Shown in pieces: positions 269 through 63,237 of a DNA stretch of 64,000 bases. Both the position numbers and the translations under genes were made by a program. The stretch is from Hymenobacter yonginensis (lineage in GTDB: Bacteria; Bacteroidota; Bacteroidia; Cytophagales; Hymenobacteraceae). Under the pieces are notes generated by a model that was not told the origin of the DNA, searched no databases, and was given only the letters and a program-made list of their open reading frames with translations. The stretch spans positions 2,728,001 through 2,792,000 of the forward strand of contig NZ_CP115396.1 in the NCBI RefSeq assembly GCF_027625995.1, given 5' to 3'. Numbering within the stretch: position 1 is the stretch's first letter; each line of letters starts with the position of its first letter.

Positions 269-408
269 CTCAGTATAGAGTAGCAAGTAGTGAGTACTGA
301 GTATTCTGACGCGAGTCGGCAACCCTAAATGCGGTGCTAGCACTCAACACCAACTTTTCAGTACCAGCCACCAAATACCGACTACTCAGTACCAAATACT
401 TAATACTC
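269..408. repeat. Word-repeat island between uppP and truB
   Basis: Starts right after the uppP stop codon. The left half (269-306) is built from AGTA/GAGTA words, including GAGTACTGAGTATT. The right half (361-408) carries the complementary words TACCGACTACTCAGTACC and ACCAAATACTTAATACTC. The halves are imperfect inverted copies. The longest truB frame (from GTG 334) reads through the right half, which argues that this frame start is not the real one. Confidence 0.55.
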
Positions 409-411
409 CCT

Positions 412-1224
412 TTGGAAAATCCCCGCTCATTCGACTTTGAAGCCGGCGAAGTACTGCTGATGGACAAGCCGCTCACCTGGACGTCGTTCGACGTGGTGCG
501 CAAGGTGAAGAACACGCTGCGCATCAAGAAGATCGGGCACGCCGGCACCCTCGACCCGCTGGCCACCGGCCTGCTGATTTTGTGCACTGGCAAGAAAACC
601 AAGGAAATCGACCTGATTCAGGCCCAGGAAAAGGAGTACACCGGGACCTTCCGCCTCGGCCAGACCACACCCAGCTTCGACCTGGAAACGCCCGTGGACT
701 CCGAGCTGTCCTACCAGCACCTTACCGAAGACGAAATCCGGGCGGCCACCGCGCAATTTTTAGGGCTGATTACCCAGACGCCGCCGCTGTTTTCGGCGGT
801 GAAGGTGAACGGCGAACGGGCCTACGAAGTGGCCCGCCGCGGCGGTGAAGCCGAAATCAAGAGCAAGCAGGTCACCATCCGCGAGTTTGAATTCACGCGC
901 ATTGAGCTGCCCGAGGTGGACTTCCGCGTGACCTGCTCCAAAGGCACCTACATCCGCAGCCTAGCCCGCGACTTTGGCCTGGCCCTGGGCTGCGGCGCCC
1001 ACCTCACCAAGCTGGTGCGCACCCGCATCGGTGAGTACCGCGTGCAGGACGCGCTGACCATGGAGGATGTGGAAGCCCTGCGCCCGCCGCGCCCCGAAGG
1101 CGAAACCGAGCGGCCCCGCCGCCAGCGCCAGCCCCGCCCAGAGCGCCGCGCCGGCCTGGAGTTCTTCTCGGCCAACCAAACCGACACCCCGCCACCCGCC
1201 GCCGCCACCGCCGCCACCGAGTAG
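412..1224 (+). CDS. truB: tRNA pseudouridine(55) synthase TruB
   Basis: Makes pseudouridine 55 in the T-loop of tRNAs. The protein has the family signature: LLMDKPLTWTSFDVVRKVK, then GHAGTLDPLATGLL with the catalytic Asp at about residue 48, and later CSKGTYIRSLARDFG. About 50 Pro/Arg/Ala-rich residues follow the catalytic domain (RPRRQRQPRPERRAGLEFF...). I place the start at TTG 412 (LENPRSFDFEAGE). The longer frame from GTG 334 only adds residues translated from an intergenic repeat. The next in-frame ATG, at LLMDKPL, would cut into the fold. Followed by ribF after 93 bases. Confidence 0.93.
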   Translation: MENPRSFDFEAGEVLLMDKPLTWTSFDVVRKVKNTLRIKKIGHAGTLDPLATGLLILCTGKKTKEIDLIQAQEKEYTGTFRLGQTTPSFDLETPVDSELSYQHLTEDEIRAATAQFLGLITQTPPLFSAVKVNGERAYEVARRGGEAEIKSKQVTIREFEFTRIELPEVDFRVTCSKGTYIRSLARDFGLALGCGAHLTKLVRTRIGEYRVQDALTMEDVEALRPPRPEGETERPRRQRQPRPERRAGLEFFSANQTDTPPPAAATAATE

Positions 1225-1317
1225 CTGCGGCGGGCGACGAATGGCAGCCGGCAACCGCGCCGTATTCGCCGTCCGGCAATCAGCGAAACCAATTCCATCA
1301 GCGCAAATCAGCGAGTT

Positions 1318-2265
1318 ATGCACGTCATCCACGATCCGGCGCAATTCCCGCACCTCGGCAATGCCGTCGTGACCAGCGGCACCTTTGACGGCGTGCACAT
1401 CGGGCACCAGCAGATTCTGCGGCGGCTGTGCGAAGTGGCCCGCCACAGCGCCGGCCCGGCCGTGGTTATCACCTACTGGCCCCACCCGCGGCTGGTGCTG
1501 GGGCCGCCCCCCTCCCACCCCGAGCTGCTGGAGCTGCGCCTGCTCAGCACCCTGGAAGAGCGGGCCGCCAAGCTGGCCGAGTTCGGCGTCGACTACCTGC
1601 TGGTGGTGCCCTTCACCCGGGAGTTTGCGCAGTGGACGTCGGAAGAGTACATCCAGAACATTCTGCTGCGCACGGTGGGCACCCGCAAACTGGTCATCGG
1701 CTACGACCACCGTTTCGGCAAAAACCGGGAAGGCGGCTTCGACTACCTCAGCCTACACGCCGACCGATACGGCATGAGCGTGGAGGAAATTCCGCGCGAG
1801 GACGTGGACGCCGTGGGCGTGAGCAGCACCCGCATACGGCGGGCCCTGGAAAGCGGCGACGTGGCCACCGCCAACCGCTACCTTGGCTACCCCTACCCGC
1901 TGACCGGCCTGGTGGTGAAGGGCCGACAGCTGGGCCGCACCATCGGCTGGCCCACGGCTAATATTGTGTGTGAGGAGCCGCTGAAGCTGATTCCGGCGCG
2001 TGGCGTGTACGCCGTGCTGGCCACCACGGCCGCCGGCACCCACCACCCGGCCATGCTCAACATCGGGGTGCGCCCCACCATCGGCGGCGACCTGGCCCAG
2101 ACCGTGGAGGCACACCTGCTGGACTTCGAGGGCGACCTGTATGACCAGCCCCTGACCGTGCAGTTCGTAGCCCGCCTCCGCGACGAGCAGAAGTTCAACG
2201 GCCTCGACGAGCTGAAAACCCAGCTGGCCCTGGACGCCGAAGCAGCGCAGGCGGCGCTTTTGTAG
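1318..2265 (+). CDS. ribF: Bifunctional riboflavin kinase / FAD synthetase
   Basis: Cytosolic enzyme that phosphorylates riboflavin to FMN and adenylates FMN to FAD. The N-terminal nucleotidyltransferase domain (about residues 1-185) shows [13 protein letters not shown] and the later [13 protein letters not shown] motif. The C-terminal riboflavin kinase domain (about 190-310) shows [16 protein letters not shown]. At 315 residues the length is normal for the family. The ATG at 1318 gives a short lead-in ([10 protein letters not shown]) to the first beta strand. The gene lies 93 bases after truB, the usual neighbour in many bacteria. A large perfect palindrome starts 17 bases after its stop. 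Confidence 0.96.
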
Positions 2266-2282
2266 ATTTCTCGCAGTGTCTT

Positions 2283-2354
2283 GCAGTGAAAAAGCGCGGT
2301 GTTGCGCAGTGTTCAGGCGTCAGAACACTGCGCAACACCGCGCTTTTTCACTGC
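2283..2354. repeat. Perfect 32-bp inverted repeat with 8-base loop
   Basis: Arms 2283-2314 and 2323-2354 are exact reverse complements and the loop is 2315-2322. The stem contains AAAAAGCGCGG paired with CCGCGCTTTTT, so it could act as a transcription terminator in either direction. It sits between the ribF stop (2265) and the scoA start (2397). The words GCAGTG and CGCAGTGTT recur within and just before the arm, as in the other word-repeat islands of the window. Confidence 0.85.
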
Positions 2355-2396
2355 GAAACGCTTTACCTTGCCGGCCCAAACCCCACCCAATTCCCC

Positions 2397-3095
2397 ATGA
2401 TCAATAAAGTAGTAAGCGGCCCGCAGGAAGCCCTGCAGGGCCTGACGGACGGCATGACCCTGATGCTGGGCGGCTTCGGCCTGTGCGGCATCCCCGAAAA
2501 CAGCATCGAAGAAATCCTGCGCCTGGGCGTGCGCAACCTCACCTGCATCAGCAACAATGCCGGCGTCGACGACTTCGGCATCGGTCGGCTGCTGCAGACC
2601 AAGCAGGTGCGCAAGATGATTTCCAGCTACGTGGGCGAAAACGCCGAGTTTGAGCGCCAGCTGCTGAGCGGCGAGCTGGAAGTGGAGCTGATTCCGCAGG
2701 GCACGCTGGCCGAGCGCTGCCGGGCCGGCGGCGCGGGCATTCCGGCCTTCTACACCCCGGCCGGCTACGGCACGGAGGTAGGCGAGGGCAAGGAAAGCCG
2801 CGAGTTCAATGGCAAGATGTACCTACTCGAAACCGCCCTGCACGCCGATTATGCCTTCGTGAAAGCCTGGCGCGGCGACACGGCCGGCAACCTTATCTTC
2901 AAAGGCACGGCCCGCAACTTCAACCCCATGATGGCCACGGCCGGCAAAATCACGGTGGCCGAAGTGGAGGAGCTGGTACCCGCAGGCGAGCTGGACCCCA
3001 ACCAGATCCACACGCCCGGCATCTTCGTGCAGCGCATTTTTGAAGGCAAAAACTACGAGAAGCGCATCGAGCAGCGCACGGTTCGGCAGGGGTAA
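2397..3095 (+). CDS. scoA: 3-oxoacid CoA-transferase, subunit A
   Basis: Alpha subunit of a family I CoA transferase (SCOT type) that moves CoA between succinyl-CoA and a 3-oxoacid such as acetoacetate. The family glycine-rich signature [14 protein letters not shown] is at residues 22-35, and conserved blocks such as [19 protein letters not shown] and NFNPMMATA follow. The ATG at 2397 (MINKVVSG) gives the normal 232-residue subunit. A longer frame from 2286 would read through the palindrome and add 37 unrelated residues. The beta subunit follows after 105 bases. The symbol follows common use; atoD/pcaI-type substrates cannot be excluded from sequence alone. Confidence 0.93.
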
Positions 3096-3200
3096 TGAGG
3101 TGATGAAGGGAAACGTAATGAGGTGGCAAAATCCATCCTCAGTTTTCCCGAAACGTCCTTTTCAACCTCATCACTTCATCACCTTTTACCTCATTACCCC
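3089..3200. repeat. Inverted word-repeat island filling the scoA-scoB gap
   Basis: The left arm starts at 3089 (GGGGTAATGAGGTGATGAAG) and contains the scoA stop codon TAA. The right arm ends at 3200 (ACCTCATTACCCC), directly against the scoB ATG. The arms are imperfect reverse complements made of the word ATGAGGTGATG. The island therefore occupies the whole stop-to-start interval of an operon encoding two subunits of one enzyme. Confidence 0.7.
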
Positions 3201-3857
3201 ATGTTAGATAAACACGGCATTGCCCGGCGCATTGCGCAGGAAGTCCAGAACAACTCCTACGTCAACCTCGGCATCGGCATTCCGACACTGGTGGCCAACT
3301 ACATTCCCGAAGGCGTCAATGTAGAGCTGCAGAGCGAGAACGGCCTGCTAGGCATGGGCCCCTTCCCCACCGAAGACCAGGTAGACCCCGACCTCATCAA
3401 CGCCGGCAAGCAGACCGTCACGACGCTACCCGGCTCCAGCATCTTCAGCTCCGCCGACTCGTTCGGCATGATCCGGGGCGAGCATGTGGACCTGACTATC
3501 TTGGGAGCCATGGAGGTTTCCGAGAACGGTGACATTGCCAACTGGAAAATCCCCGGCAAGATGGTGAAAGGCATGGGCGGCGCCATGGACCTGGTGGCCT
3601 CGGCCAAAAACATCATCGTGGCCATGCAGCACGTGGCCCGCGACGGCAGCAGCAAGCTGCTGCCCGCCTGTACGCTGCCCATCACCGGCCTACGCTGCGT
3701 GAAGAAAATCGTGACCGAGCTGGCCGTCATCGACGTGACGCCCGACGGCTTCGTGCTGCGCGAGCGGGCTCCCGGCGTGACCGTGGAGCAGATTCAGGCC
3801 GCCACCGCCGGCAAGCTGGTGGTACGCGGTGAAATCCCGGAAATGACGGGCGTGTGA
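3201..3857 (+). CDS. scoB: 3-oxoacid CoA-transferase, subunit B
   Basis: Beta subunit partner of the preceding gene. It contains the catalytic glutamate motif [12 protein letters not shown], with Glu46 expected to form the CoA thioester intermediate. It also has [19 protein letters not shown] near the N-terminus, typical of the subunit. At 218 residues the length is normal. The ATG at 3201 ([16 protein letters not shown]) is chosen because the longer frame from 3123 is made of repeat sequence. Together with scoA this allows use of acetoacetate or related oxoacids through the TCA cycle. The physiological substrate is inferred. Confidence 0.94.
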
Positions 3858-3862
3858 GTTGG

Positions 3863-4091
3863 GATGAGGTGATGAGGTGATGAGGTGATGAGGTAAGAAC
3901 GTCATTCCGAGCAGCGCGAGGAATCTCGCCCGCGGGCTACTCCCAAAAAACTCTGCCGCCGGAGAAAACACGTCTGGCTCCCCCTCTCCACGGGAGAGGG
4001 GGCCGGGGGGTGAGGCACGCGAGATGCTTCGGCTGCGCCTCTGCATGACGTACCATTCACCTCATCACCCCATCACTTCATCACCTTAAAA
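3863..4091. repeat. Nested (three-level) palindromic element
   Basis: Three inverted pairs sit inside each other. Outermost: ATGAGGTGATGAGG repeats at 3863-3897 against ACCTCATCACCCCATCAC words at 4056-4091. Middle: ACGTCATTCCGAGCAGCGCG... at 3899-3930 against ...GCTGCGCCTCTGCATGACGT at 4012-4050. Innermost: CCCCCTCTCC (3980-3989) and GGAGAGGGGG (3993-4002) with a 3-base loop. It fills the space between the scoB stop (3857) and the stop of the convergent hypothetical gene (4094). Confidence 0.75.
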
Positions 4092-4093
4092 AA

Positions 4094-18061: not shown

Positions 18062-19417
18062 ATGAAATCCTTCTTTCTCACCCGCCGCTTCTTTCTGCTG
18101 CTCACCGCTCTTATCCTGGGGCTGGTGGTGGCGTTTTTTCTGCCGGGCTGGCTGGCGCTGGTGCAGCTGGCGCTGGGCTTGCTGCTGGTGCTGCTGGCCC
18201 TGGATGTGCTGCTGCTCTACGCCCCGGCCAAAGGCGGCGCCGGCCACCTGTTCGGGCGGCGGGTGCTGGGCGATAAGCTGGCCAACGGCTCCGACAACGA
18301 CATCAGCCTCTACCTCGAAAACCACTACCGCTTCCCGGTCAGCACCAAAACCATCGACGAGATTCCGCACCAGTTTCAGCGCCGCGACGTGCTGTTTTGG
18401 GCCGCTATCCGGCCGGGCGAGACGCAGGTAATCCGGTATCAGCTGCGGCCGGTGAAGCGCGGCGAGTACGAGTTTGGAGCCTTGAACGTGTACGTGGCCT
18501 CGCCGCTGGGGCTGGTGCGGCGGCGCTTCCAGTTTGATGAGAAACGGGTGGTGCCGGTGTATCCGTCGTTTCTACAGATGCGGCAGTACGAGCTGCTGGC
18601 CATCAGCAACCGCCTGACGGAAGTGGGCGTGAAGCGCATCCGGCGGGTCGGGCACAGCATGGAGTTTGAGCAGATCCGGCCCTACGTGCCCGGCGACGAC
18701 CCGCGCTCCATCAACTGGAAAGCCACCGCCCGCCGCACCACCACCGGCCATGCCGCTGACTCCTTGGTGGTGAATCACTTTCAGGACGAGCGTGCCCAGC
18801 AGGTGTACTGCCTGATTGATAAGGGCCGCGTGATGCGCATGCCGTTCGAAGGCTTGAGCCTCCTGGACTACGCCATCAATGCTACGCTGGTGGTCAGCAA
18901 CATTGCCATCCTTAAGCACGACAAGGCCGGCCTGATTACCTTCTCGCACCAGCCCGGCACGGTACTACCCGCCGACCGGCGCGGCGGCCATATGCGCAAG
19001 CTGCTAGAGGTGCTGTACCGGCAGCGCACCAAGTACCTCGAAACCGACTACGAGCGGCTGTACATCAGCGTCAAAAACAACGTCCGGCAGCGCAGCCTGC
19101 TGATTCTGTTCACCAATTTCGAGACGCTGAGCGGCATGCAGCGCCAGCTGCCCTACCTGCGCCGCCTCGCCAAAGACCACCTGCTGCTGGTGGTATTCTT
19201 TGAAAACACCGAACTGCGCGAGTTTCTGGACGCCTCCGCCGCCACGCCCCAGGACGTATACAACCAAACCATTGCCGAGAAATTCGCGCAGGAAAAGCGC
19301 CAGATCGTGCGCGAGCTGAACCGCTACGGCATCCACGCCCTACTCACGGCCCCGCAAAACCTGACGGTGAACACCATCAACAAATACCTGGAGTTCAAGG
19401 CAAGGGGGCTGATATAA
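18062..19417 (+). CDS. DUF58 domain-containing protein
   Basis: 451 residues. Two N-terminal membrane helices (about 10-55) are followed by a beta-rich segment and the DUF58 signature EQIRPYVPGDDPRSINWKAT (about residues 203-222). A VWA-like fold follows: VYCLIDKGRVMRMPFEGLSL has lost the full MIDAS DxSxS, and there are later RSLLILFTNFE and LLLVVFF strands. Partner of the MoxR ATPase. Its TAA stop is the first codon of a large inverted repeat. The function is unknown, but the MoxR-DUF58 pair is widely conserved. Confidence 0.93.
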   Translation: MKSFFLTRRFFLLLTALILGLVVAFFLPGWLALVQLALGLLLVLLALDVLLLYAPAKGGAGHLFGRRVLGDKLANGSDNDISLYLENHYRFPVSTKTIDEIPHQFQRRDVLFWAAIRPGETQVIRYQLRPVKRGEYEFGALNVYVASPLGLVRRRFQFDEKRVVPVYPSFLQMRQYELLAISNRLTEVGVKRIRRVGHSMEFEQIRPYVPGDDPRSINWKATARRTTTGHAADSLVVNHFQDERAQQVYCLIDKGRVMRMPFEGLSLLDYAINATLVVSNIAILKHDKAGLITFSHQPGTVLPADRRGGHMRKLLEVLYRQRTKYLETDYERLYISVKNNVRQRSLLILFTNFETLSGMQRQLPYLRRLAKDHLLLVVFFENTELREFLDASAATPQDVYNQTIAEKFAQEKRQIVRELNRYGIHALLTAPQNLTVNTINKYLEFKARGLI

Positions 19418-19552
19418 TCACGGATTTTTGCGAATTAAACGGATTAGTCGGATTTCGTGGACGGCGCGCCGTGGCAGGGTTCTGCTACCTCTATAGGCGC
19501 TGACGACTACAAAATCCGACCAATCCATTTAATCCGCAAAAATCCGTGATTA
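19415..19552. repeat. Inverted element whose ends are the stop codons of two convergent genes
   Basis: The left arm (19415-19456) begins TAATCACGGATTTTTGCG; the right arm (19511-19552) is its reverse complement with about four mismatches over 42 bases. The first three bases of the left arm are the stop of the DUF58 gene. The last three bases of the right arm are the stop of the minus-strand membrane-protein gene. The centre contains CGTGGACGGCGCG, also found in the related copy at 63176-63237. The paired arms could form a terminator-like hairpin. Confidence 0.9.
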
Positions 19553-21439: not shown

Positions 21440-21551
21440 TGTAGCGCGAAGCTTTTGCTTCGCGCACCACAGCACGTAGGCGCCGCGCAGAGTGAGTGCG
21501 ACGAATAAGGCCATTTTCCAAGGGTACGCGAAGCAAAGGCTTCGCGCTACA
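21440..21551. repeat. 25-bp inverted repeat in the divergent gap
   Basis: The arms are 21440-21464 (starting TGTAGCGCGAAGCTTTTGC) and 21527-21551 (ending GGCTTCGCGCTACA). They are reverse complements with one mismatch, 62 bases apart. Each arm itself carries the short palindrome GCGAAGC..GCTTCGC. It lies in the 291-base gap between the minus-strand membrane-protein gene (start 21352) and the GH20 gene (start 21644). Nothing else is seen in that gap except the -7 box near 21610. Confidence 0.85.
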
Positions 21552-28192: not shown

Positions 28193-28263
28193 AGAAAAGA
28201 TATACACGCCGGCAGGCTGCCGGTAGCTCAACGTAAAAATAGCGTGGATTCGTGCCAGCCTTA

Positions 28264-28423
28264 CCCCACCCCAACCCCTCCCCAAAAGGGAGGGGCTTAG
28301 ATTACTACCACAACGACAGGATGACGTGCGCTGCAATGCCTGCGTAAGGCTGCCAATACACGAGTGCATGACGTTGCCAAAGTAACAAAAGCCCCTCCCT
28401 TTTGGGGAGGGGTTGGGGTGGGG
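28264..28423. repeat. Perfect 33-bp inverted repeat, abutting the kinase stop codon
   Basis: Arms 28264-28296 and 28391-28423 are exact reverse complements. Each arm is also a hairpin (CCCCTCCC..GGGAGGGG). The right arm ends at 28423, one base before the histidine-kinase stop codon (28424-28426). The 94-base centre (28297-28390) shows no ORF. Confidence 0.9.
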
Positions 28424-31400
28424 TCAACCCGCCAGCGGCAGTTCGATATAGAACGTGGTGCCGGTACCTTCCTCCGTCTCAAACCAGACGCTGCCGCCGG
28501 CGCTTTCGATGCCGCGGCGTGCCACAGCCAGCCCGATGCCGGAGCCGGTGGCTTTGGTGGTGAAGTTGGGAATGAAGATTTTCTCGCGCACATCGGCCGG
28601 GATGCCGGCGCCGTTGTCCTGGATGCTGATCTGCACCCGCTTGTTGCTCTGCACGCTCAGTTGGGCCGAAACCTGGGCGGCGCGGCCTTCAGGTACGGCT
28701 TGCAGGGCGTTGATGAGCAGGTTATTGAACGTGCGCACCAACAGGTTTTCGTCGGCAAACACGATAGTGGGCGTCTCTTCCTCGGGCAGCTGCAGCTCGA
28801 TGCGGGCGTCAGGGCGGCTGCCCTGGTGCAGCTCCACGCAGCGGCGCAGAATAGGGGCTACGTCGAGGCGCTCGGGGCGCATGGCGGGTAGGTTGGTGAA
28901 GGTGCTGAACGAGGTGGCAATGTCGGTCAGCACGTCAATCTGGGTGATGAGCGTCTGCGACACCTTGGCAATCAGTTCGTCGAGGTTGGGGCGCTGGTCC
29001 TGGATGGCGCGCTGCAGAAACTGCAGGCTCAGCTTCATGGGCGTGAGCGGGTTCTTGATTTCGTGGGCCACCTGCCGGGCCATTTCGCGCCAGGCGGCTT
29101 CCTTTTCCTGGGTGGCCAGCTCCAGCTTGCTTTCCTCCAGCTTGAGCAGCATGGCGTTGTACTCGCGTACCAGCAGCCCAATTTCGTCGTCCGACTGGTA
29201 GTCGAGCGTTTCGTTCTGGCCGGTGAGCGTGGTTTGGCGGAGCTTCTGGGTGAGCAGCTTGAGCGGATTGGTGAGCATGCGCGAGGCCACAAACGTGAGC
29301 ACCAGAAACACAATGAACATGCCCGTGAAGATGTTGAGCAGAGTCGAAATCAGCTCAATCAGCTTGTTGTCCAACTCTTTCTCGGAGTCGAAGAACGGAA
29401 TGCCCACGTAGCCCAGCACCCGCCCGGCCTGCCCGGCCTCAGTTTCGGCGGCCCGCAGCGGCAGATACAGTGAGTTGAACGACAGCGAGCCGGCCCGCTC
29501 CATCAGCAGCACCCGCGGCTGGGCGCGTTCCTTAAGCGCCGCCACGGCCTGCGGGTTCATCAGCGGCCCCAGCAGCCCCGACTCGAACATGATGGGCTGG
29601 CTGCTGACGATGAGCTGGCCGCGGGCGTCGTAGAGATTGAGGTCGGTTTCGGTGAGCGAGGCCACGTTGTCGGCCAGGGCCAGCAACGCGGGGCGGCCGG
29701 CCGAGTCGGTGAGCAGGGCGCGGTTCTGCAGCAGGTTGTCCTGCACGGTGCGGCCGCGCCGCTCGTAGGTGCGGCGCAGGTCGCGCTTATACGACGACGT
29801 CACCTGGCTGGCCGTGGCAATACTCACCAGCACCAACGGCACCAGAATCCCGAAGTTGAGAAACAGCTGAATCTTGGTGCTGAAGTTGGTACGCAGCACG
29901 GCCAAATACTCGCCGCGCACCAACAGGTACAGCGCCATGGCCAGCAGCCAGTAGAAGGTGTGCAGCAGGAATAGGAACGAGAAGTTGGCCAGCCAGTCGG
30001 AGAAGCTGTACGTGGACGTGGTGACGACCACCGTGCGGTGCTGGGTTTCGTCGCGCACGGCCAGGTGATGGAAGCGGCCCACCACCAGCCCCGTGCGGTA
30101 CAGGCGCGGGTCGTTGTACTGCTGGCGGCGCAGGCGGTTCACGTAGTCGAAATCTCCTTCGCTGTACACCAGCCGGTCCTGCTCGTAGCCGGCGTAGCTC
30201 AGCTCGGCCCCTAGCCCGGGCTGAAAGAGCTTCTGGTCGACCAGCAGCTCGGGCACCACGCTGTAGGTGGTCAGCTTCTTGAGGCTAAGCTCCAGTAGCA
30301 CGGTGTTGGTGCCCTGCCCCGCCCCGGGCACGGCCACGAAATCCACGTAGCGCCGGGTGCTGAACGAGTTGTTGCCGCGCACCAGAAACAGGTTGAGCTG
30401 GTCGGTGCGGGTGGAGTTCTGCAGCAGCCGGTACCGCGCCTGCGACAGGGTTTCGGCCCCCTGCCCCGCCCCGATGGGCCGGCCGGCGGCATCAAAAAAC
30501 GATATCGTGACTTCGTATTTGCCGAAGTAGTTGCCGAGATAATGTTTCACAATTTTCTGGCGCACCACTTCCGGGTTGGCAAACGGGCCAGCCAGCACCT
30601 TGCGGATCAGCGGGTCGGCCGCAATTTCGCGGGCCCGCTCCGTAAGCAGAAACTCGCCCTGCAGGTCGTTGTCGGTGAGCAGGTTGCCGGCCAGGTTCTG
30701 CTTGTTCTGCACCAGCTGGCGGTCGAAGTGCTCGAACAGCGCCAACGCGCCCACGGCCGCGCTGACACTAAGCATCAGGAAGATGAACAGATACACCTGA
30801 TAGGTGCCCATGGCCGCCACGCGCCGCAGCCCGGTCAGGCGCAGCAGCAGAAAAATCCAGAGCGTGATGCCCACCAGCATCACCTGCACCTGCCCCAGCG
30901 CCACACCCACCGGCAGAAACAGCAGCGCCCCCAAACCCAGGCCAAACACACCTTCTCGGCCTTTGCCGGTACCCAGCGTGGCACTGAACAGCTGCGCCAC
31001 CAGATAATACCCCACCAGATAGGCCCCGGTGTGCAGAGCAATGGCCAGCGTCAGCAGCAGCTTAAGGCCCGATACCGAGATATCCTGCGTAATGTCAAGT
31101 ATGACCCGCGAGTTGTTGAAGCTGTTGGAATAGAACTGAAACTGCAGCTCCAGCAGCACAAAAAACAGCACCCCGGCCACCACGCCTACCGTCGTGCGGT
31201 CCGAGGTTTTGGTGAGGCGCTCCACCCAGCGGGTGGGATTGTAGTGCCGGAACAGCCGCAGCCCGCAGTAAGCCGCCAGCGCCAGCAGCAGCGCGTTGAT
31301 AAACAGGTCGCCGAGCGAGGGCGACAGCCACGACGCCGCGTACACCCGCGGGTCGAACAGCGGCAGCTCAATAAAGGAAAACGGCAGCCCCAGCGGCAGC

Positions 31401-33571: not shown

Positions 33572-34223
33572 AGGAGTAGAGCAGCACGTCGATTTCCGTC
33601 ATGAGGCGCTCAACGTCTTTGGTTTTGGTGCCGTCGTAGATGCCGCGCACCCGATGGTCGCGGTCTACGAGGTAGAGTTTCTGGCTGTGCTCGATGCCGG
33701 GCGCCTGGCCCTTGGGAGCTTCCAGCCGAAACTCGTCCGTGATTAACCGGTAAAGCGCCGTTTTGTCTCCGGTCAGGAAAAACCATTTGCCGGCAATGGC
33801 GCCATACTGCTCGGCGTAGCGCTCCAGCACGGCCACCGAATCCTGAGCGGGGTCAACGGTAAACGATACCAGCTTTACGCGCGGATCTTTGCGGTACCGT
33901 TCCTGCACGCGCGCCATCTGGCTGTTCATGCGCGGGCAGGCGCCCGGGCAGGTGGTGTAGAAGAAATTGGCCACATACAGGCCGTTAGCCGCCACCTCGC
34001 GCTGCGTTACCACCCGGCCAGATTGCGACGTAAACCGGAAATCGGCCAACTGGTGGAAAACAGTATCGCGCCGCCACTTCCCTTCCACCAACGTCGAATC
34101 GACGCCCGTGGGCAGGTAAGTGGGCAGCGCGTAACGGTTGGTGCCGAATGTGTACAGAAACACAAAGGCCAGCACCGGGACCAACAGCATGAGGCCCAAC
34201 AACAGGACGTGTTTGGGCCTCAT
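33558..34223 (-). CDS. SCO1/SenC copper chaperone
   Basis: 221 residues. N-terminal membrane anchor (VLLLGLMLLVPVLAFVFLYTFG), then a thioredoxin-fold periplasmic domain. The copper ligands are visible: CPGACP (Cys92, Cys96) and His179 in GIEHSQKLYLVD. It delivers copper to the CuA site of the oxidase subunit II encoded in the same cluster. It overlaps the DUF420 gene, and the gap to the subunit IV gene is four bases. Confidence 0.96.
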   Translation of the reverse strand: MRPKHVLLLGLMLLVPVLAFVFLYTFGTNRYALPTYLPTGVDSTLVEGKWRRDTVFHQLADFRFTSQSGRVVTQREVAANGLYVANFFYTTCPGACPRMNSQMARVQERYRKDPRVKLVSFTVDPAQDSVAVLERYAEQYGAIAGKWFFLTGDKTALYRLITDEFRLEAPKGQAPGIEHSQKLYLVDRDHRVRGIYDGTKTKDVERLMTEIDVLLYSYEHE

Positions 34224-34227
34224 GTAG

Positions 34228-34566
34228 TTAGTTGAATACGTTCCAGAACGAGTTCTGATAGGTTCCTTCCGTCACCAGAGCAATCAGCAGCCAGACGAGC
34301 AGGGCCATCGGAATGAGGATCGTCCAGATCAGCGCTTTCACTTCATGCTTCAAGTGCATGAACTCGGCCACGATGAAGAACGCCTTGAAAATCGTCAGGA
34401 TGATGAAGATGGAGTTGCGGAGCGTGCTGGGCTCCATCAGGAATACGAAGACGAATTCCAGGGCCGTAATACCAACCAGAATGAAGAAAGTCTTCCAGAT
34501 CCAGCCGGTGTTCGGCTTGGCGATTTCGCCGGGAGCAGTGGGCTCAGTGCCTGCGTGATTAGCCAT
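34228..34566 (-). CDS. Cytochrome c oxidase subunit IV-like protein
   Basis: 112 residues with three membrane helices (TFFILVGITALEFVFVFLM, IFIILTIFKAFFIVAEFMH, LIWTILIPMALLVWLLIALV). The sequence matches the COX4/CyoD-like small subunit family, including FMHLKHE after the second helix. It lies between subunit III and Sco in the oxidase operon. The preceding gap is filled by a word-repeat island. Confidence 0.9.
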   Translation of the reverse strand: MANHAGTEPTAPGEIAKPNTGWIWKTFFILVGITALEFVFVFLMEPSTLRNSIFIILTIFKAFFIVAEFMHLKHEVKALIWTILIPMALLVWLLIALVTEGTYQNSFWNVFN

Positions 34567-34665
34567 TTGATTGAATGGTTAAATTGTTGAATTGCTAAAT
34601 AGGCTACGGTGCTACAAGTCAGTCGAAGGATCAACCAGTCAACACTTTAGCCATCGAACAATTTA
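34567..34665. repeat. Word-repeat island filling the gap between subunits III and IV
   Basis: GGTTAAATTGTTGAATTGCT at about 34578 is inverted against TTTAGCCATCGAACAATTTA near 34646, with a few mismatches. The subunit III stop codon (34663-34665) lies inside the right arm, and the island ends at the subunit IV start, so the whole inter-gene gap is repeat sequence. Confidence 0.6.
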
Positions 34666-35439
34666 AACGAGGTAGAAGAAGGTGAAAACGAACACCCACA
34701 CCAGATCTACAAAGTGCCAGTACAGGCCAATCTTCTCGACCATTTCGTAGTGGCCACGCTTTTCGAACGTGCCGTTGGTGGTGGCAATAAACGACCACAC
34801 CAGCAGGCAGACACCCGAGAATACGTGCGTACCGTGGAAACCGGTAATAAAGAAGAACAGGTCAGCAAACAGCACCGGACCGTACTGGTTTACGGCCAGG
34901 TTGGCGCCGTACACTGTGGTACCGTCCAACATTTTGGTGCCGGCATCGGTGCCATGGATGAAGTGGCTCCACTCCCAAGCCTGCGAGCCCAGGAACGTGG
35001 CCCCGAACAGGATAGTCCACAACAGCCACTTCTGCACGTCCTTCTTGTCCATGCGGTGGCCGGCTTCTACGGCCAGTACCATCGTCACGGAGCTGAAGAT
35101 GAGAATCATCGTCATCAGGGCCACAAAGCCCAATGGTACATCCATGCCGTGCAGGCCGGGGAAACCATTGAACACCTTGTCCGGCACCGGCCAGTAGGCG
35201 GTCGAAAACTCGAACGCCTTGCCAGCGGCGGCATCAAATGCCGGATAGCGGTGGCGGATCAGGCCGTAGGTGGTCAGGAACGCGGCGAACGTGAAGGCGT
35301 CCGACAGCAGGAAGAACCACATCATCAGCTTGCCGTAGCTGGCCTTGAAGGGCTCGTTGCCTCCGTCCCAGTTGCCGCTACGCGGCCGGTCGGCGGCGCT
35401 GGCAGTAGAGAGGGGCTGCGTCGTGGAAATCGTGGACAT
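34663..35439 (-). CDS. ctaE: Cytochrome c oxidase subunit III
   Basis: 258 residues, about six to seven helices. Subunit III motifs are seen: KLMMWFFLLSDAFTFAAFLT, TILFGATFLGSQAWEWSHFI, LFFFITGFHGTHVFSGVCLL and the final YWHFVDLVWVFVFTFFYL. It stabilises the catalytic subunits of the aa3-type oxidase. A second, shorter subunit-III paralogue is encoded just upstream on the same strand (gap 21 bases). Confidence 0.96.
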   Translation of the reverse strand: MSTISTTQPLSTASAADRPRSGNWDGGNEPFKASYGKLMMWFFLLSDAFTFAAFLTTYGLIRHRYPAFDAAAGKAFEFSTAYWPVPDKVFNGFPGLHGMDVPLGFVALMTMILIFSSVTMVLAVEAGHRMDKKDVQKWLLWTILFGATFLGSQAWEWSHFIHGTDAGTKMLDGTTVYGANLAVNQYGPVLFADLFFFITGFHGTHVFSGVCLLVWSFIATTNGTFEKRGHYEMVEKIGLYWHFVDLVWVFVFTFFYLV

Positions 35440-45434: not shown

Positions 45435-45540
45435 AGTTTTAGAATTTTGGGTCTTGGGAACTTAGGGGCTCAGCTTTTTGCGGCAGTGGTATCTGGTAAA
45501 ACCAAGACCCCAAACTCCCAAGCCCCCAACTACTGATTTA
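45435..45540. repeat. Word-repeat island filling the actB-actC gap
   Basis: The left part (45435-45474) contains TTTTGGGTCTTGGGAACTTA; the right part (45500-45540) contains ACCAAGACCCCAAACTCCCA. They are inverted variants of one word pattern. The island starts nine bases from the actB stop and runs to the actC start. A related word (GGGGACTTAGGGTCTTG) also lies upstream of actB at 48560-48580. Confidence 0.6.
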
Positions 45541-50801: not shown

Positions 50802-51053
50802 ATGAGTCTCGCCAACGAACGTATCCACAAGCAGGATACCCGCAAGAAGTATTGCCGCTTCAAGAAGAACGGCATCAAGTATGTTGATTACAAGGATCCG
50901 AACTTCCTGCTGAAGTTTGTGAACGAGCAGGGCCGCATTCTGCCCCGCCGTATCACGGGCACCAGCCTCAAGTTCCAGCGCAAGGTAGCTCAGGCTGTGG
51001 CCAAGGCTCGCCACCTCGCCCTGATGCCTTACGTAACCGACTCGTTGAAATAA
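50802..51053 (+). CDS. rpsR: 30S ribosomal protein S18
   Basis: 83 residues. RKKYCRFKKNGIKYVDYKDP, GRILPRRITG and QRKVAQAVAKARHLALMPY are S18 signatures. Binds 16S rRNA with S6. ATG 50802 (MSLANERIHK) is the start; the frame from TTG 50781 overlaps the rpsF end. The stop is followed directly by a word-repeat island. Confidence 0.97.
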   Translation: MSLANERIHKQDTRKKYCRFKKNGIKYVDYKDPNFLLKFVNEQGRILPRRITGTSLKFQRKVAQAVAKARHLALMPYVTDSLK

Positions 51054-51137
51054 GTTGTCAGTGTTTAGTTGTCAGTTGTCAGTTAACGGTCTTGTGCCTG
51101 CACAGTGACTAACAACCAGCAACCAGCAACTAACAAC
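51054..51137. repeat. Word-repeat island between rpsR and rplI
   Basis: The left arm, GTTGTCAGTGTTTAGTTGTC and onward (from 51054, directly after the TAA stop), is inverted against ACTAACAACCAGCAACCAGC and onward (ending 51137). It leaves 11 bases before the rplI ATG. The word is AGTTGTCAGTTG. Confidence 0.65.
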
Positions 51138-51148
51138 TCTATAAAGAC

Positions 51149-54351: not shown

Positions 54352-56382
<2,031 letters not shown>

Positions 56383-60353: not shown

Positions 60354-60391
60354 AAGAAGTAGGAAGGTTGGTGAAAGTGTTAAGAACGGAC

Positions 60392-60406: not shown

Positions 60407-60548
60407 TCAGAACACGGCGAAAAAAAAGTGCGTTGTATAGCCATTTAAGCCCCGATTTCCGTGTGGTACTTGTTGCATACCAAACGCTGCCGAACGCTTC
60501 CGCCGGCTGGAATGTTGAGCGGAACACAGTTTATTTGCACCTGTGCGT

Positions 60549-61334
60549 ATGACTCCTTACCCCCTGTTCCAGGCAGCTGTGCTGTCTGCCCTTCTGCTGC
60601 CGACCGCCTGCACCCAAACGCCCATGGAAAGCGCTGCCGCTGTAAGCGCCGAGCGCCGGCTGCAGGATAATCCATTGGCTGCCCCCGATACCTCCGGCTA
60701 CCGGGTGGGCGCCCCCCAGGATCCCAACGGCATCGGCAAGTACTACCAGGGCCGCCAGATTGCCCACGTGATGGGCCACGAGGGAGCCGACTGGCTGGAG
60801 CGCAACGATCGGCAGGAAGAGGAAGGCACCGATATTCTGCTGCGCGAGCTGCAGCTCAAGCCCACCGACGTGGTGGCCGACATCGGAGCCGGCACCGGCT
60901 ACTTTTCGTTCCGTATCAGCCCGCTGGTACGCAAGGGCAAGGTGCTGGCCGTGGATATTCAGCCGGAGATGATTGAGTACCTGCGCGACAACAAAGCCCG
61001 CAACAAGGCGCCCAACGTGCAGCCCGTGCTCGGCACCGTGCAAAACCCCAACCTGCCGGCCGCCGGCGTGGATCTGGTGCTGATTGTGGACGCCTACCAC
61101 GAGTTCGACCACCCGCGCGAAATGATGCAGTCGATTTACAAGTCGCTGCGGCCGGGCGGGCGGCTGGCGCTGGTGGAATACCGCGCCGAAGATCCCAACG
61201 TGCCCATCAAGCGCATCCACAAGATGAGCGAGGCCCAGGCGCGTAAGGAAGTGGAGGCCGCCGGCCTGGAGTTTGTGGAAAACCGCCAGACGCTGCCGCA
61301 GCAGCACCTGCTGATTTTCCGGCGCGCCAAGTAA
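60549..61334 (+). CDS. Exported class I SAM-dependent methyltransferase-like lipoprotein
   Basis: 261 residues. MTPYPLFQAAVLSALLLPTAC is a lipoprotein signal (Cys21). The rest is a Rossmann-type methyltransferase: motif I is VADIGAGTGYFSFRI (about 108-122), the acidic residue after strand 2 is in VLAVDIQPEMIEYL, then LVLIVDAYHEFDHPREMMQS and LRPGGRLALVEYR. A GTG at 60543 would add two residues. The methyl donor is not known to be available outside the cytoplasm, so the activity is uncertain. queA follows on the same strand after 51 bases but has its own -7 box. Confidence 0.85.
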   Translation: MTPYPLFQAAVLSALLLPTACTQTPMESAAAVSAERRLQDNPLAAPDTSGYRVGAPQDPNGIGKYYQGRQIAHVMGHEGADWLERNDRQEEEGTDILLRELQLKPTDVVADIGAGTGYFSFRISPLVRKGKVLAVDIQPEMIEYLRDNKARNKAPNVQPVLGTVQNPNLPAAGVDLVLIVDAYHEFDHPREMMQSIYKSLRPGGRLALVEYRAEDPNVPIKRIHKMSEAQARKEVEAAGLEFVENRQTLPQQHLLIFRRAK

Positions 61335-61372
61335 GATCTGGCCGGAATATAGGCGCAATAACGGCCCCGGGC

Positions 61373-61380
61373 TACCTTTG
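61373..61380 (+). promoter_or_regulatory. -7 box TACCTTTG five bases before the queA ATG
   Basis: An exact TAnnTTTG match. Transcription would begin at about the ATG (61386), so queA may be read from a leaderless mRNA. Confidence 0.5.
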
Positions 61381-61385
61381 CGCCC

Positions 61386-62624
61386 ATGTCCAGTTCCCTG
61401 CCCGACCCGCGCCAGCTTTCCATCCACGACTTCACCTACCAGCTCCCGCCCGAGCGTATCGCGCCCGAGCCCCTGGCCCAGCGCGACCAGTCGCGGCTGC
61501 TGCTGAGCCGCCAAGGCGCCATTGAGGACCGCACGTTTCACGAGCTGCCGGCCGTGTTGCCGGCCGATTCGCTGCTGGTTTTCAATGACACTAAAGTGGT
61601 GCGGGCGCGCCTGTTCTGCCACAAGCCCACCGGCGGCCAGATCGAGCTGTTTTGCTTGGAGCCGGTAGCGCCGCACCGGGCTTTGGAGCCGGCCATGCAG
61701 CAAACCGGCAGCTGCGTCTGGAAATGCTTGGTTGGGAATGGCAAGCGCTGGAAAACCGGGCCGGTACTGTTGGACTTTGAGGCGCTGGGCGAGCCCGCCA
61801 CCCTCACGGCCGAGCGGCTGGAAGCCACTGCCGAAGGCTACTCGCTGATCCGTTTTAGCTGGGAGCCGGCCACGCTACCGTTTGCCGAAGTGCTGCGCGG
61901 GGCCGGCCACCTGCCCCTCCCCCCTTACCTCAACCGCGACGATACCGCCGTGGATGCCGTGCGCTACCAGACCGTGTATGCCGCCCACGAAGGCGCCGTA
62001 GCGGCCCCCACGGCCGGCCTGCACTTCTCCGAGGCCGTACTGGCCGAATTGGCCGAACGCGGCCACCAGCAGGCCCGCGTAACGCTGCACGTGGGCGCCG
62101 GCACCTTCCAGCCTGTGAAAGCCGACCGCATGGACGGCCACGCCATGCACGGCGAACCCATCAGCGTGAGCCGGGTGGTGCTGGAGCAGCTGCTGCACCA
62201 CGCCCCGCACCCGATTATTGCCGTGGGCACCACCAGCCTGCGCACGCTGGAAAGCCTATACTGGCTGGGCGTACAGGCCGCGCAGGGCCTGCTCCCGACC
62301 GACAGCACGCCCCACGTAAGCCAGTGGCAGCCCTACGAGCCCGGCTCCGACCTGCCCACGGCCGCCGCCCTGCAGGCCCTGCTGCACCACCTTGACACGC
62401 AGCAGCAGGACGCACTGCACGCCACCACCCAGCTGCTCATCGCGCCCGGCTACCGCTTCCGCCTGATTCAGGGGCTGGTTACCAACTTCCATCAGCCCGA
62501 AAGCACGCTCCTGCTGCTAGTAGCCGCCCTGCTCGGCCCCGACTGGCGCCGCGTCTACGACCACGCGCTGGCCAACGGCTACCGTTTCCTGAGCTACGGC
62601 GACAGTTCGTTGTTGCTGCCGTAG
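61386..62624 (+). CDS. queA: tRNA preQ1(34) S-adenosylmethionine ribosyltransferase-isomerase
   Basis: 412 residues. Family motifs: IHDFTYQLPPERIAPEPLAQ, RDQSRLLL near the N-terminus, LLVFNDTKVVRARLF, then YQTVYAAHEGAVAAPTAGLHF and HVGAGTFQPVKADRMDGHAM. It transfers ribose from SAM to preQ1 in tRNA during queuosine synthesis. ATG 61386 lies next to a consensus -7 box. The C-terminal region with NFHQPESTLLLLVAAL is also typical. Confidence 0.95.
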   Translation: MSSSLPDPRQLSIHDFTYQLPPERIAPEPLAQRDQSRLLLSRQGAIEDRTFHELPAVLPADSLLVFNDTKVVRARLFCHKPTGGQIELFCLEPVAPHRALEPAMQQTGSCVWKCLVGNGKRWKTGPVLLDFEALGEPATLTAERLEATAEGYSLIRFSWEPATLPFAEVLRGAGHLPLPPYLNRDDTAVDAVRYQTVYAAHEGAVAAPTAGLHFSEAVLAELAERGHQQARVTLHVGAGTFQPVKADRMDGHAMHGEPISVSRVVLEQLLHHAPHPIIAVGTTSLRTLESLYWLGVQAAQGLLPTDSTPHVSQWQPYEPGSDLPTAAALQALLHHLDTQQQDALHATTQLLIAPGYRFRLIQGLVTNFHQPESTLLLLVAALLGPDWRRVYDHALANGYRFLSYGDSSLLLP

Positions 62625-62748
62625 CCAAGGGAGGTAATTGTGCTTTTGCCGGGTTGAAAACCGCATTTGTAGCCGCATCAGCAACCTATTTCAGGAGCGC
62701 CGTATAAGGGCTCAGGTTTACCTAAAACCTCTCCTAAAATCAGAAATC

Positions 62749-63066
62749 ATGAAAAAGATGCTCATGCTGCTTGCTGCAGCTACCTTTTCCACTGCCGCTT
62801 TCGCCCAAGGCGACAAAGTAGTTGTGCGTGACGAAGCTACCGGTGCTAAAGCCGAAACCACTGTGCGCGACAACGGTACGGTGAAAACCGAAACCCGCAC
62901 CGGCCGCACGGAAGCTGGCCAGAAGGCCTACAACACTAAAGAAGACGTAAAGTACGCTGGCAAGAAAACCGGCCGTACCGTAGAAAAAGGCGCTAAAAAA
63001 GCCGGCCGTGGCATCAAGAAAGGCGCCAAAGCCGTGAAAAACAAAGCCGAGGATATCGTTGACTAA
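62749..63066 (+). CDS. Small secreted Lys/Gly/Thr-rich protein
   Basis: 105 residues. Signal peptide (MKKMLMLLAAATFSTAAFAQ) followed by a hydrophilic, Lys-rich chain with loose repeats: RTGRTEAGQKAYNTKEDVKY, then KKTGRTVEKGAKKAGRGIKK and GAKAVKNKAEDIVD. The GxKKxGRxxxKG spacing resembles amphipathic histone-like or stress-linked secreted peptides. No family is recognised. ATG 62749 is used; the frame from 62638 lacks a signal. Flanked downstream by two hairpins. Confidence 0.75.
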   Translation: MKKMLMLLAAATFSTAAFAQGDKVVVRDEATGAKAETTVRDNGTVKTETRTGRTEAGQKAYNTKEDVKYAGKKTGRTVEKGAKKAGRGIKKGAKAVKNKAEDIVD

Positions 63067-63078
63067 CTCCCGGATTCA

Positions 63079-63116
63079 GCCGGAAAGCCTGGGCTTTTCC
63101 AGACAATCCGGCTGAG
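63079..63116 (+). terminator. Imperfect hairpin after the small secreted-protein gene
   Basis: AGCCGGA (63079) pairs with TCCGGCT ending at 63116, with a loose central part. A stronger hairpin follows. Confidence 0.4.
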
Positions 63117-63127
63117 GTAGATTACAG

Positions 63128-63159
63128 AAAAAGGGCTTGCCAGATGGCAAGCCCTTTTT
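63128..63159 (+). terminator. Strong terminator between convergent genes
   Basis: AAAAAGGGCTTGCC pairs with GGCAAGCCCTTTTT around AGAT. Symmetric A- and T-tracts suggest it works in both directions. Confidence 0.9.
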
Positions 63160-63175
63160 GTTGTCAAGCGGCAGC

Positions 63176-63237
63176 GAAATTCGCCCGCGCCGTCCACGAA
63201 ATCCGTGAACTCCGACTAATCCGCAAAAATCCGTGAT
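63176..63237. repeat. Half-copy of the 19415-19552 element
   Basis: Reading the minus strand, ATCACGGATTTTTGCGGATT (from 63237) is followed by AGTCGGA and, further on, TTTCGTGGACGGCGCG. This matches the left arm and centre of the 19415 element, but no second inverted arm is present. It lies two bases after the M14-type gene stop. Confidence 0.85.

What the first reader, a model, noticed from the sequence alone, without database searches (positions are those of the whole stretch)
269..63237. Gap-filling inverted word-repeat islands anchored on stop codons
At least ten intergenic gaps (269-408, 2283-2354, 3089-3200, 3863-4091, 19415-19552, 21440-21551, 28264-28423, 34567-34665, 45435-45540, 51054-51137) hold inverted repeats built from a different reiterated word in each gap. 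Most arms begin at, or within about ten bases of, a stop codon, and several fill the entire gap inside an operon. Single word families are known from Bacteroidota intergenic DNA. A shared rule (one word per island, stop-anchored, inverted) across so many gaps suggests a common formation mechanism or RNA-level role.
Basis: partly seen in the sequence, partly recalled or inferred. Interest (0 to 1): 0.72.

Follow-up and report, generated by a model that had tools for sequence, protein, structure and literature searches.

The report
Word-armed selfish elements behind stop codons
Small DNA islands made of a repeated short word and its mirror copy sit just behind stop codons in this bacterium, and they match the ends of tiny, probably selfish gene-carrying elements found in many kinds of bacteria, which may explain puzzling short repeats noticed for decades.

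Summary
The inverted repeats are real and far above chance. Eight of the ten gaps read as arrays of 7-9-nt words; 21440 (divergent gap) and 28263 are REP-like palindromes, and two gaps share a word. The islands belong to a size series. In the genus, 51 of 63 tested ORFs of two small protein families (PF05635, the "23S rRNA IVS" four-helix bundle, and GxxExxY, a PD-(D/E)XK fold) lie inside such word arms (0.2 expected from shuffles; control genes 6 of 355), mostly gap-filling, behind a stop codon, along the upstream gene. Each family has its own vocabulary, and ORF-less islands reuse it. The scoA-scoB gap holds ORF-less islands or either ORF in different species. The S18-L9 gap is all-or-none in 121 sequences: 87 islands of 81-125 nt in about ten word classes, 34 empty gaps of 2-21 nt. 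About half of PF05635 loci sampled from other phyla, cyanobacteria included, show arms. Arm mismatches lack the G-U bias of terminators (151:143 versus 37:12), favouring DNA-level maintenance over an RNA role. Best reading: IVS-like selfish elements between protein genes. Mobility and the proteins' roles are inferred; a dosage test was negative.

The parts
269..408 (.). ORF-less word island behind the stop at 266-268; arms 278-306 and 380-408; GAGTAGTGAGTACTGAG-type words (IVP-type vocabulary)
   Evidence: 79% arms; 13 nine-mers shared with IVP-element arms, 0 of 200 shuffles reach this
2275..2362 (.). ORF-less word island; arms 2275-2314 and 2323-2362 (GCAGTG-type words, possibly GxxExxY-type vocabulary)
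   Evidence: score 32.5, 9 nt after the stop; G001 has a longer copy, G003 only a short single-arm piece; GxxExxY 5 nine-mers, 7% of shuffles reach it
3089..3200 (.). Gap-filling island between scoA and scoB; GATGAGGT octads; left arm begins 7 nt inside scoA, right arm ends at the scoB ATG
   Evidence: the same gap in other species holds other words, an IVP ORF or a GxxExxY ORF
3858..4093 (.). Convergent-gap island: outer GATGAGGT octads around an inner REP-like palindrome (GTCATTCCGAGC..) and a GC hairpin
   Evidence: score 23.0; dispersed 77-86% copies of the island in G001 and G003; layered copies
19415..19552 (.). Convergent-gap island; CGGATT-type words; both stop codons lie inside the arms; the loop is inverted relative to G001
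   Evidence: 36 nine-mers shared with GxxExxY-element arms (0 of 200 shuffles); loop identity .80 inverted versus .30 direct
34567..34666 (.). Island between COX3-like and COX4-like genes; arms 34579-34599 and 34646-34666; other words in other species
   Evidence: no nine-mer shared with ORF-element arms
45435..45540 (.). Island between an Fe-S gene and an NrfD-like gene; GGGTCTTGGGA-type words (IVP-type vocabulary)
   Evidence: score 11.0; 7 nine-mers shared with IVP arms, 0.5% of shuffles reach it; pfam
51054..51148 (.). Island between rpsR (S18) and rplI (L9); GTTGTCA heptads; over 120 genomes and the window an island in 87 and an empty gap in 34
   Evidence: no nine-mer of the window's island shared with the genus's ORF-element arms
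50802..51053 (+). rpsR (ribosomal protein S18), upstream neighbour used for the orthology test
   Evidence: PF01084
51149..51592 (+). rplI (ribosomal protein L9), downstream neighbour
   Evidence: PF03948/PF01281
2397..3095 (+). CoA transferase subunit A (scoA), upstream neighbour of the 3089 island
3201..3857 (+). CoA transferase subunit B (scoB)
21440..21551 (.). REP-like inverted palindrome (GCGAAGC..GCTTCGC) in a divergent gap; judged not a member
   Evidence: 138 and 92 nt from the called genes; similar palindromes at other G001 sites in the list
28263..28424 (.). CCCCTCCC..GGGAGGGG palindrome; judged REP-like, not a word island; a different IR stands in this gap in G001

Best explanation
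The word islands are members, mostly ORF-less, of a family of small selfish hairpin elements related in plan to the 23S rRNA intervening sequences (IVS), but living in gaps between protein genes. An element is two inverted arms of a reiterated 7-9-nt word around either a short spacer (whole element about 95-140 nt) or a roughly 350-450-nt ORF. The ORF is an IVP/S23 four-helix-bundle protein (mostly heptad or octad arms) or a GxxExxY PD-(D/E)XK protein (mostly nonad-like arms). The element sits at or just behind the stop codon of a gene, often inside an operon. It carries its ORF along the direction of the host transcript, so read-through can express it (inferred), and it is lost or replaced by another element of the family. 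SHOWN: anatomy, position, co-orientation, family-specific vocabulary, replacement and emptiness at orthologous gaps, spread over phyla. INFERRED: that the two proteins bind or cut the arms and drive copying; that ORF-less copies are mobilised in trans or are remnants; that arms are kept alike by a DNA-level process (hairpin-templated copying or conversion) rather than by selection on RNA folding.
For: Arms flank 24 of 32 IVP and 27 of 31 GxxExxY ORFs tested in the genus (score 14 or more; shuffles 0.08 and 0.10) against 2 of 117 and 4 of 238 control genes. ORF along the upstream gene: tandem gaps 29 versus 2 (binomial). Outside the genus, score 13 or more: IVP 45 of 79 loci (0.38 expected), GxxExxY 19 of 29 (0.30 expected), named plasmid loci 9 of 19. 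Vocabulary: between-family arm pairs share a 9-mer in 0.46% of 648, within-family pairs in 16.4% of 627; 68 of 87 S18-L9 islands share 3 or more 9-mers with IVP arms (6.5 expected), 7 of 87 with GxxExxY arms (7.85 expected). Size: IVP gap minus ORF median 98 nt, ORF-less S18-L9 islands 96 nt. scoA-scoB gap, 27 sequences: word islands in 7, IVP ORF in 2, GxxExxY ORF in 2. S18-L9: gap lengths 2-21 nt (34) or 81-125 nt (87), nothing between; 31 word changes among islands and 9 island/empty changes on the coding tree. Dispersed copies of the 3858 island. No G-U bias.
Against: No new insertion, target-site duplication or excision product was seen. The number of IVP matches per genome does not correlate with the number of TAGTATTGAG-word sites (Spearman 0.07, p 0.57, 61 genomes). 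The nearest genome, G001, has no IVP match yet carries word islands. No arms at score 13: 8 of 32 and 4 of 31 in the genus, 34 of 79 IVP loci, 10 of 29 GxxExxY loci, 10 of 19 plasmid loci; two plasmid loci with arms (L238, L239) read against both neighbours. Words in two window islands (34567, 51054) are not found in the genus's ORF-element arms. Co-orientation may reflect need for expression rather than the insertion mechanism. Sense folding is slightly the more stable in 62 of 87 islands.
Confidence: 0.7

Rival explanations
1. RNA-level elements: the islands are intercistronic or 3'-end hairpins selected as RNA (termination, RNase III processing, differential stability of operon segments).
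For: Stop-anchored, scarcer in divergent gaps; strong hairpins (mean -32.5 versus -15.7 kcal/mol shuffled in 65 islands) and the sense strand folds better in 62 of 87; the IVS of 23S rRNA is cut by RNase III (PMC4990558, abstract).
Against: Arm mismatches show no G-U preference (151:143) while terminators of the same genomes do (37:12, Fisher p 0.002); the S18-L9 island is absent in 34 of 121 sequences; words are replaced wholesale; ORFs of two unrelated families sit in the loop.
Confidence: 0.15
2. Neutral local growth: tandem slippage plus template switching turns any gap sequence into inverted word arrays; IVP and GxxExxY genes merely land in such spots.
For: Word copy number varies between close genomes; one loop is inverted relative to its flanks; arms are alike within an element and differ between elements.
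Against: The same words recur at unrelated loci; vocabulary is tied to the enclosed protein family; S18-L9 gaps are all-or-none in length; wholesale word change between genomes with nearly identical coding flanks; fixed polarity in 21 of 21 word pairs picked from one listing.
Confidence: 0.1
3. Ordinary REP/BIME-like or MITE families moved by a transposase coded elsewhere in the genome, with the word arms as unusually variable ends and the IVP and GxxExxY ORFs as passengers.
For: REP-like palindromes occupy the same gaps and even the loops of word islands; dispersed near-full copies of one island.
Against: Words, not a fixed end sequence, define the arms; two protein families with two vocabularies; no target-site duplication seen. 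A transposase elsewhere in the genomes was not searched for.
Confidence: 0.15

Closest known systems
23S rRNA intervening sequences (IVS) with the S23/IVP ORF (PMC4990558, abstract seen; PMC11270868, passages seen)
   Same: Hairpin element with an optional PF05635 ORF; ORF-bearing size similar (428 nt in that paper; median IVP-bearing gap here 485 nt); described there as a selfish, horizontally acquired element
   Different: Here between protein genes, not in rRNA (0 of 40 loci examined); arms built of reiterated words; a second ORF family (GxxExxY); RNase III cutting untested
Heptad repeats GGGAATC of Xanthomonas and GGGGA(T/C)T of Nostoc (PMC4692102, passages seen)
   Same: Intergenic heptads close to stop codons on the sense strand, few between divergent genes (7-9%); 70 and 75 convergent +/- pairs in two Xanthomonas genomes
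   Different: One word type per genome group; studied there as G-quadruplex repeats and generally not found with mobile elements; no link to IVP or GxxExxY in the passages seen; few pairs in Nostoc
TAACTGA intergenic repeats of Beggiatoaceae, cyanobacteria and Bacteroidetes (PMC4679880, abstract and passages seen)
   Same: Heptads, intergenic, also inside ribosomal protein operons, sporadic across phyla; a mobile element or a mobile binding protein is considered there
   Different: Direct repeats with one indirect repeat in the main genome; mostly just upstream of start codons; 'S23' and 'four helix' do not occur in its text
Nostoc tRNA-Leu intron P6b heptad hairpins, classes TDNGATT and NNTGAGT (PMC4476775, abstract and passages seen)
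   Same: A hairpin stem made of one of two 7-nt words, with repeated replacement of one class by the other at a fixed site
   Different: Inside a group I intron; no ORF in the passages seen; two classes only
Cyanobacterial STRR (Mazel 1990) and small dispersed repeats (recalled, not read)
   Same: Heptad tandem repeats, intergenic
   Different: No described link to IVP elements, as far as recalled

Membership tests
23S rRNA intervening sequence (IVS) | Lies within a 23S rRNA gene | tested here: not met
   0 of 40 IVP loci examined (of 80 held) and none of the window give an rRNA match; annotated neighbours are protein genes
23S rRNA intervening sequence (IVS) | Long complementary ends forming a hairpin | tested here: met
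23S rRNA intervening sequence (IVS) | Optional S23/IVP (PF05635) ORF in the loop | tested here: met
   the window's own islands are ORF-less
23S rRNA intervening sequence (IVS) | Excised from the transcript by RNase III without ligation | not testable with these tools
   needs RNA data
MITE or insertion sequence | Terminal inverted repeats | tested here: met
   but the arms are word arrays that differ from copy to copy
MITE or insertion sequence | Target-site duplication | tested here: inconclusive
   empty S18-L9 gaps show no obvious duplication by eye; flanks too short and diverged
MITE or insertion sequence | Known transposase in full-length copies | tested here: not met
   the carried ORFs are PF05635 or TIGR04256/PF13366; neither is a transposase family by name
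REP / BIME | 20-40-nt palindrome with GTAG or CGTC tag (PMC3733652, start of abstract in the listing) | not tested
   tags were not sought; islands at 21440 and 28263 are filed as REP-like by look only
Intrinsic terminator | Short GC hairpin with small loop | tested here: not met
   16 tandem word islands have loops of 18.5-64.5 nt (10-90%) and arm mismatches without wobble bias, unlike 56 short-spacer hairpins
Heptad/STRR-type intergenic repeats | Tandem 7-nt units in intergenic DNA | tested here: met
   S18-L9 islands: lag-7 identity .58 left and .55 right against .21-.34 at lags that are no multiple of 7

The most novel reading that the evidence does not exclude
PF05635 (IVP/S23) and GxxExxY are the drivers of two sister classes of transcript-riding selfish hairpin elements that use stop codons as landing sites across bacterial phyla. 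Their arms are the origin of the heptad-type intergenic repeats described piecemeal as STRR, GGGAATC, TAACTGA and P6b repeats, and the rRNA IVS is one special case of the family.
Probability: 0.42. Interest if true: 0.9.

Novelty: new variant of a known kind. Interest (0 to 1): 0.8.

Why it matters
It would give two widespread gene families without known function a home and a testable job. It would also tie several unexplained short-repeat families to one class of element and suggest that IVS-like elements live mainly between protein genes rather than in rRNA. It would further explain how operon gaps, even S18-L9 and CRISPR operons, change wholesale between sister species. The searches made found no paper that links these proteins to word arms (open-access library only, listings and some passages seen; two searches returned nothing).

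Tried and rejected
Rejected: an RNA-structure origin as main cause (mismatch test). Rejected: simple dosage, that more IVP genes give more islands of one word (no correlation). Rejected as members: the palindromes at 21440 and 28263.

Errors of mine and their correction: searches did not turn loci of minus-strand matches, so their ORF contexts and arm counts are superseded; the control-gene counts stand. The mispair control was spoilt by related loci and was dropped. One search used the first protein in a wrong frame, so its gap lengths are wrong; one search replaces it. One search took 32 sequences: the window, the 30 best-scoring loci and L071, which I added because one search showed a GxxExxY ORF there; 5 of 32 were incomplete. 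My first S18-L9 sample (71 sequences) held 65 islands and 6 empty gaps and was skewed, because it left out most genomes with empty gaps; I then fetched the other 50 and the counts here are of all 120 genomes and the window. One search stopped with a script error after printing the within/between-family counts; one search did the rest. Word classes are hand-made patterns (2 of 121 unclassed); the short coding tree is weak (18 of 116 inner branches starred). The word-arm mismatch counts include near-copies; the pooled 151:143 leaves out the 24:18, which overlaps the S18-L9 set. Gene calls are by a home-made caller. Plasmid loci: 14 of 25 IVP records and 5 of 8 GxxExxY records went into. Nine-mers at 3089 matched GxxExxY arms although the word looks different; I give this no weight.

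Led nowhere: plasmid search with window DNA, Rfam, solved structure of GxxExxY (none).


Full report
WHAT IS THERE. The window is from a Bacteroidota chromosome close to G001, the nearest held genome (37% shared 31-mers; 95% DNA identity over the scoAB region). The tools did not name the genus. I take it to be Hymenobacter because the printed arms of a named Hymenobacter aerophilus locus (L211) are the same as those of L048 of this genus. The repeat finder lists inverted repeats at seven of the ten named gaps among its 25 longest pairs. With gene calls and an ungapped inverted-repeat score, 7 of the 10 gaps reach 12 (not the same seven). The gap at 269 has 79% arms. Those at 45435 and 51054 score 11.0 and 9.5, but orthologues of the latter score up to 34. 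In 400 kb of G001, gaps with score 12 or more are 43 of 50 convergent, 78 of 187 tandem and 9 of 53 divergent (shuffles 0.4, 0.7, 0.5). Of these 130, 57 are short-loop, terminator-like and 73 have spacers of 12 nt or more. The long ones include two kinds: word arrays (the finding) and REP-like palindromes such as GTCATTCCGAGC.. and TGTAGAGACGC...

STOP ANCHORING. For long-spacer IRs in tandem gaps of G001, the stop side is nearer in 39 of 49, and 30 of 49 lie within 12 nt of the stop against 17.3 expected by uniform placement; over nine sequences (orthologues included) 69 of 89 and 55 of 89 against 35.4. Long-spacer IRs occur in 49 of 187 tandem, 17 of 50 convergent and 7 of 53 divergent gaps (Fisher p 0.034). 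Tandem islands with a C-poor arm (n = 16) span from -5..+9.5 nt of the stop to 4.5..16 nt before the next start (10-90%): they fill the gap. In the convergent island at 19415-19552 both stop codons are inside the arms. Of the window's ten gaps, 21440 is the clear exception: a divergent gap.

WHAT THE SAME GAPS HOLD IN RELATIVES. scoA-scoB gap (3096-3200), 27 sequences with both gene ends (5 of 32 incomplete): word islands without ORF in 7 (window and G001 GATGAGGT; G049, G017, G028, G046 and G032 other words); an ORF between word arms in 4 (IVP in G003 and G042; GxxExxY in G027 and, frame-broken, G061); REP-like palindromes or their pieces in 9 (G002, G005, G007, G014, G018, G031, G009, G036, G056); longer inserts without such arms in 6; one short gap of 33 nt. 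These classes are by reading the listing. S18-L9 gap (51054-51148), all 120 genomes and the window: 87 islands of 81-125 nt and 34 gaps of 2-21 nt, with nothing between. The gap is thus all-or-none. IR score 12 or more in 54 and 10 or more in 65 of the 87. The islands have a clean 7-nt period (lag 7 identity .58 left and .55 right; lag 14 .56 and .52; lag 21 .48 and .44; other lags .21-.34). I sorted the words into ten hand-made classes, with 2 unclassed. On a tree of the flanking coding DNA all labels need 39 changes (shuffled mean 78.9, least possible 11), words among islands 31, and island versus empty 9: partly inherited, often replaced. Genomes with nearly identical coding flanks (for example G005, G092, G101, G028, G031) carry different words. 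In the 19415 island the loop of the window is inverted relative to G001 (identity .80 inverted.30 direct). The 3858 island has dispersed copies, arms and loop together, at 77-86% identity in G001 and G003. Its word occurs in 4 of 61 genomes (46 sites at up to one mismatch, 30 of them in G001), and many of its copies are layered: octads outside, GTGACAG heptads next, a REP-like palindrome inside.

THE ORF-BEARING FORM. The two ORFs found in the scoA-scoB gap are PF05635/TIGR02436 (23S rRNA IVP, four-helix bundle; also a weak DGR-Avd match below its cut-off) and PF13366/TIGR04256 (GxxExxY, PD-(D/E)XK superfamily). They occur in 49 and 41 of 61 genomes of the genus. I tested 32 IVP and 31 GxxExxY loci (those the tool laid out, the best-scoring ones) for inverted arms in 250-nt flanks. 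At score 14, 24 of 32 and 27 of 31 pass; shuffles expect 0.08 and 0.10. Control genes of G001 and the window pass in 2 of 117 (250-700 nt) and 4 of 238 (longer); one of these is scoB itself, which has GATGAGGT islands on both sides. Of the 51 arm-flanked ORFs, 29 lie in +[+]+, 18 in +[+]-, 2 in -[+]-, 1 in -[+]+ and 1 with unknown upstream gene: in tandem gaps 29 to 2 along the host gene. Outer arm ends mostly lie within about 20 nt of the neighbouring genes. The GxxExxY nuclease motif RxD..ExK is matched in 29 of 31 by pattern and is visible in the two others. Some copies are broken: several matches have internal stops or are split.

VOCABULARY AND SIZE. Arms of different elements share a 9-mer in 16.4% of 627 within-family pairs but 0.46% of 648 between-family pairs; shuffled arms share one in 1.2-5.0%. 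IVP arms are mostly heptads or octads, GxxExxY arms mostly CGCAGAGG- and CGGATT-type words of about nine. Of the 87 S18-L9 islands, 68 share three or more 9-mers with IVP arms (6.5 expected) and 7 with GxxExxY arms (7.85 expected). In the window, 269-408 and 45435 match IVP words, 19415 matches GxxExxY words, 2275 does so weakly, and 34567 and 51054 match neither. IVP gaps minus the ORF measure 98 nt (median of 21), ORF-less S18-L9 islands 96 nt. The TAGTATTGAG word occurs in 22 of 61 genomes. From that listing I picked the pairs on opposite strands within 200 nt by eye: 21 pairs, all plus-then-minus, median span 99 nt.

BEYOND THE GENUS. A scan of genome contigs (84,980 species) with an IVP alignment kept the best 80 of 589 relatives, from many bacterial phyla and one archaeal bin. 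45 of 79 testable loci have arms at score 13 (0.38 expected); of 43 with score 13.5 or more, 31 are +[+]+, 4 +[+]-, 5 -[+]+, 1 -[+]-, 2 unknown. GxxExxY in other Bacteroidota genera: 19 of 29 tested (0.30 expected), 15 of the 19 in +[+]+. Named plasmid loci with deposited annotation: 9 of 19 have arms at score 13 inside the gap, 7 of 14 cyanobacterial IVP loci among them (Pseudanabaena, Nostoc three times, Geminocystis, Stanieria, Picosynechococcus) and 2 of 5 GxxExxY loci (Bacteroides finegoldii, Bernardetia); 15 of 19 are +[+]+, but two with arms read against both neighbours. None of 40 IVP loci examined lies in rRNA.

DNA OR RNA. In RNA hairpins under selection, a changed pair should more often be G-U than A-C on the transcribed strand. 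Short-spacer hairpins of tandem gaps show it (37:12). Word arms do not: ORF-element arms 87:85, S18-L9 arms 64:58, together 151:143, Fisher p 0.002 against the short-spacer hairpins; the 16 tandem islands give 24:18 and partly overlap. The other long-spacer repeats are between (56:37). Against this stands a slightly better sense fold in 62 of 87 S18-L9 islands, which are not independent.

HOW IT MOST LIKELY WORKS. Shown: one architecture, two ORF families with their own words, stop-anchored and gap-filling, co-directional with the host gene, replaced or absent at orthologous gaps, widespread. Inferred: the element is selfish, is expressed by read-through of host transcripts, and its protein (IVP matches 2gsc and 2rld by sequence, five chains per entry; GxxExxY a likely nuclease) acts on the arms to copy or install elements; ORF-less forms are remnants or are helped in trans. 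Negative for the trans idea: the IVP match number does not predict the number of one IVP-type word (rho 0.07), and G001 has no IVP match.

KNOWN AND NEW. IVS with S23/IVP are known in rRNA (PMC4990558 abstract; PMC11270868 passages). Stop-near heptads with convergent pairs are known for single words in Xanthomonas (PMC4692102 passages). TAACTGA repeats with a suspected mobile agent are known (PMC4679880 passages). Heptad hairpins with word replacement are known in a Nostoc intron (PMC4476775 passages). The link between these repeats, the two protein families and stop-anchored gaps was not found in the searches made. I file it as a new variant of a known kind (IVS-like), not as an IVS, since the rRNA location was tested and not met.

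Noticed in passing
L236 and L321 (plasmids of Pseudanabaena galeata and Anabaena sp. 90): An IVP gene sits between cas6 and cas4 in both; in L322 (Picosynechococcus) one sits between cas10 and a cmr3-family gene.
   Followed up: partly
G146:C9:91044-91385, G174:C1:72354-72692, G158:C22:338277-338615: A GxxExxY match lies inside an open frame of 883 codons in three genomes, perhaps a fusion protein.
   Followed up: no
window 19415-19552: The loop of a convergent word island is inverted relative to the sister genome G001 while the flanks are collinear.
   Followed up: yes
window 3858-4093 and L136-L155: Many GATGAGGT islands are layered: octads outside, GTGACAG heptads, then a REP-like palindrome in the middle.
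   Followed up: partly
window 34180-34232: An inverted repeat overlaps the end of one gene and the start region of the next; it scores 12 in G001 and G008 and 10.5 in G003.
   Followed up: no
window 21440-21551 and 28263-28424; G001 sites: Dispersed REP-like palindromes of several families also sit close to stop codons and stand in place of word islands at orthologous gaps.
   Followed up: partly
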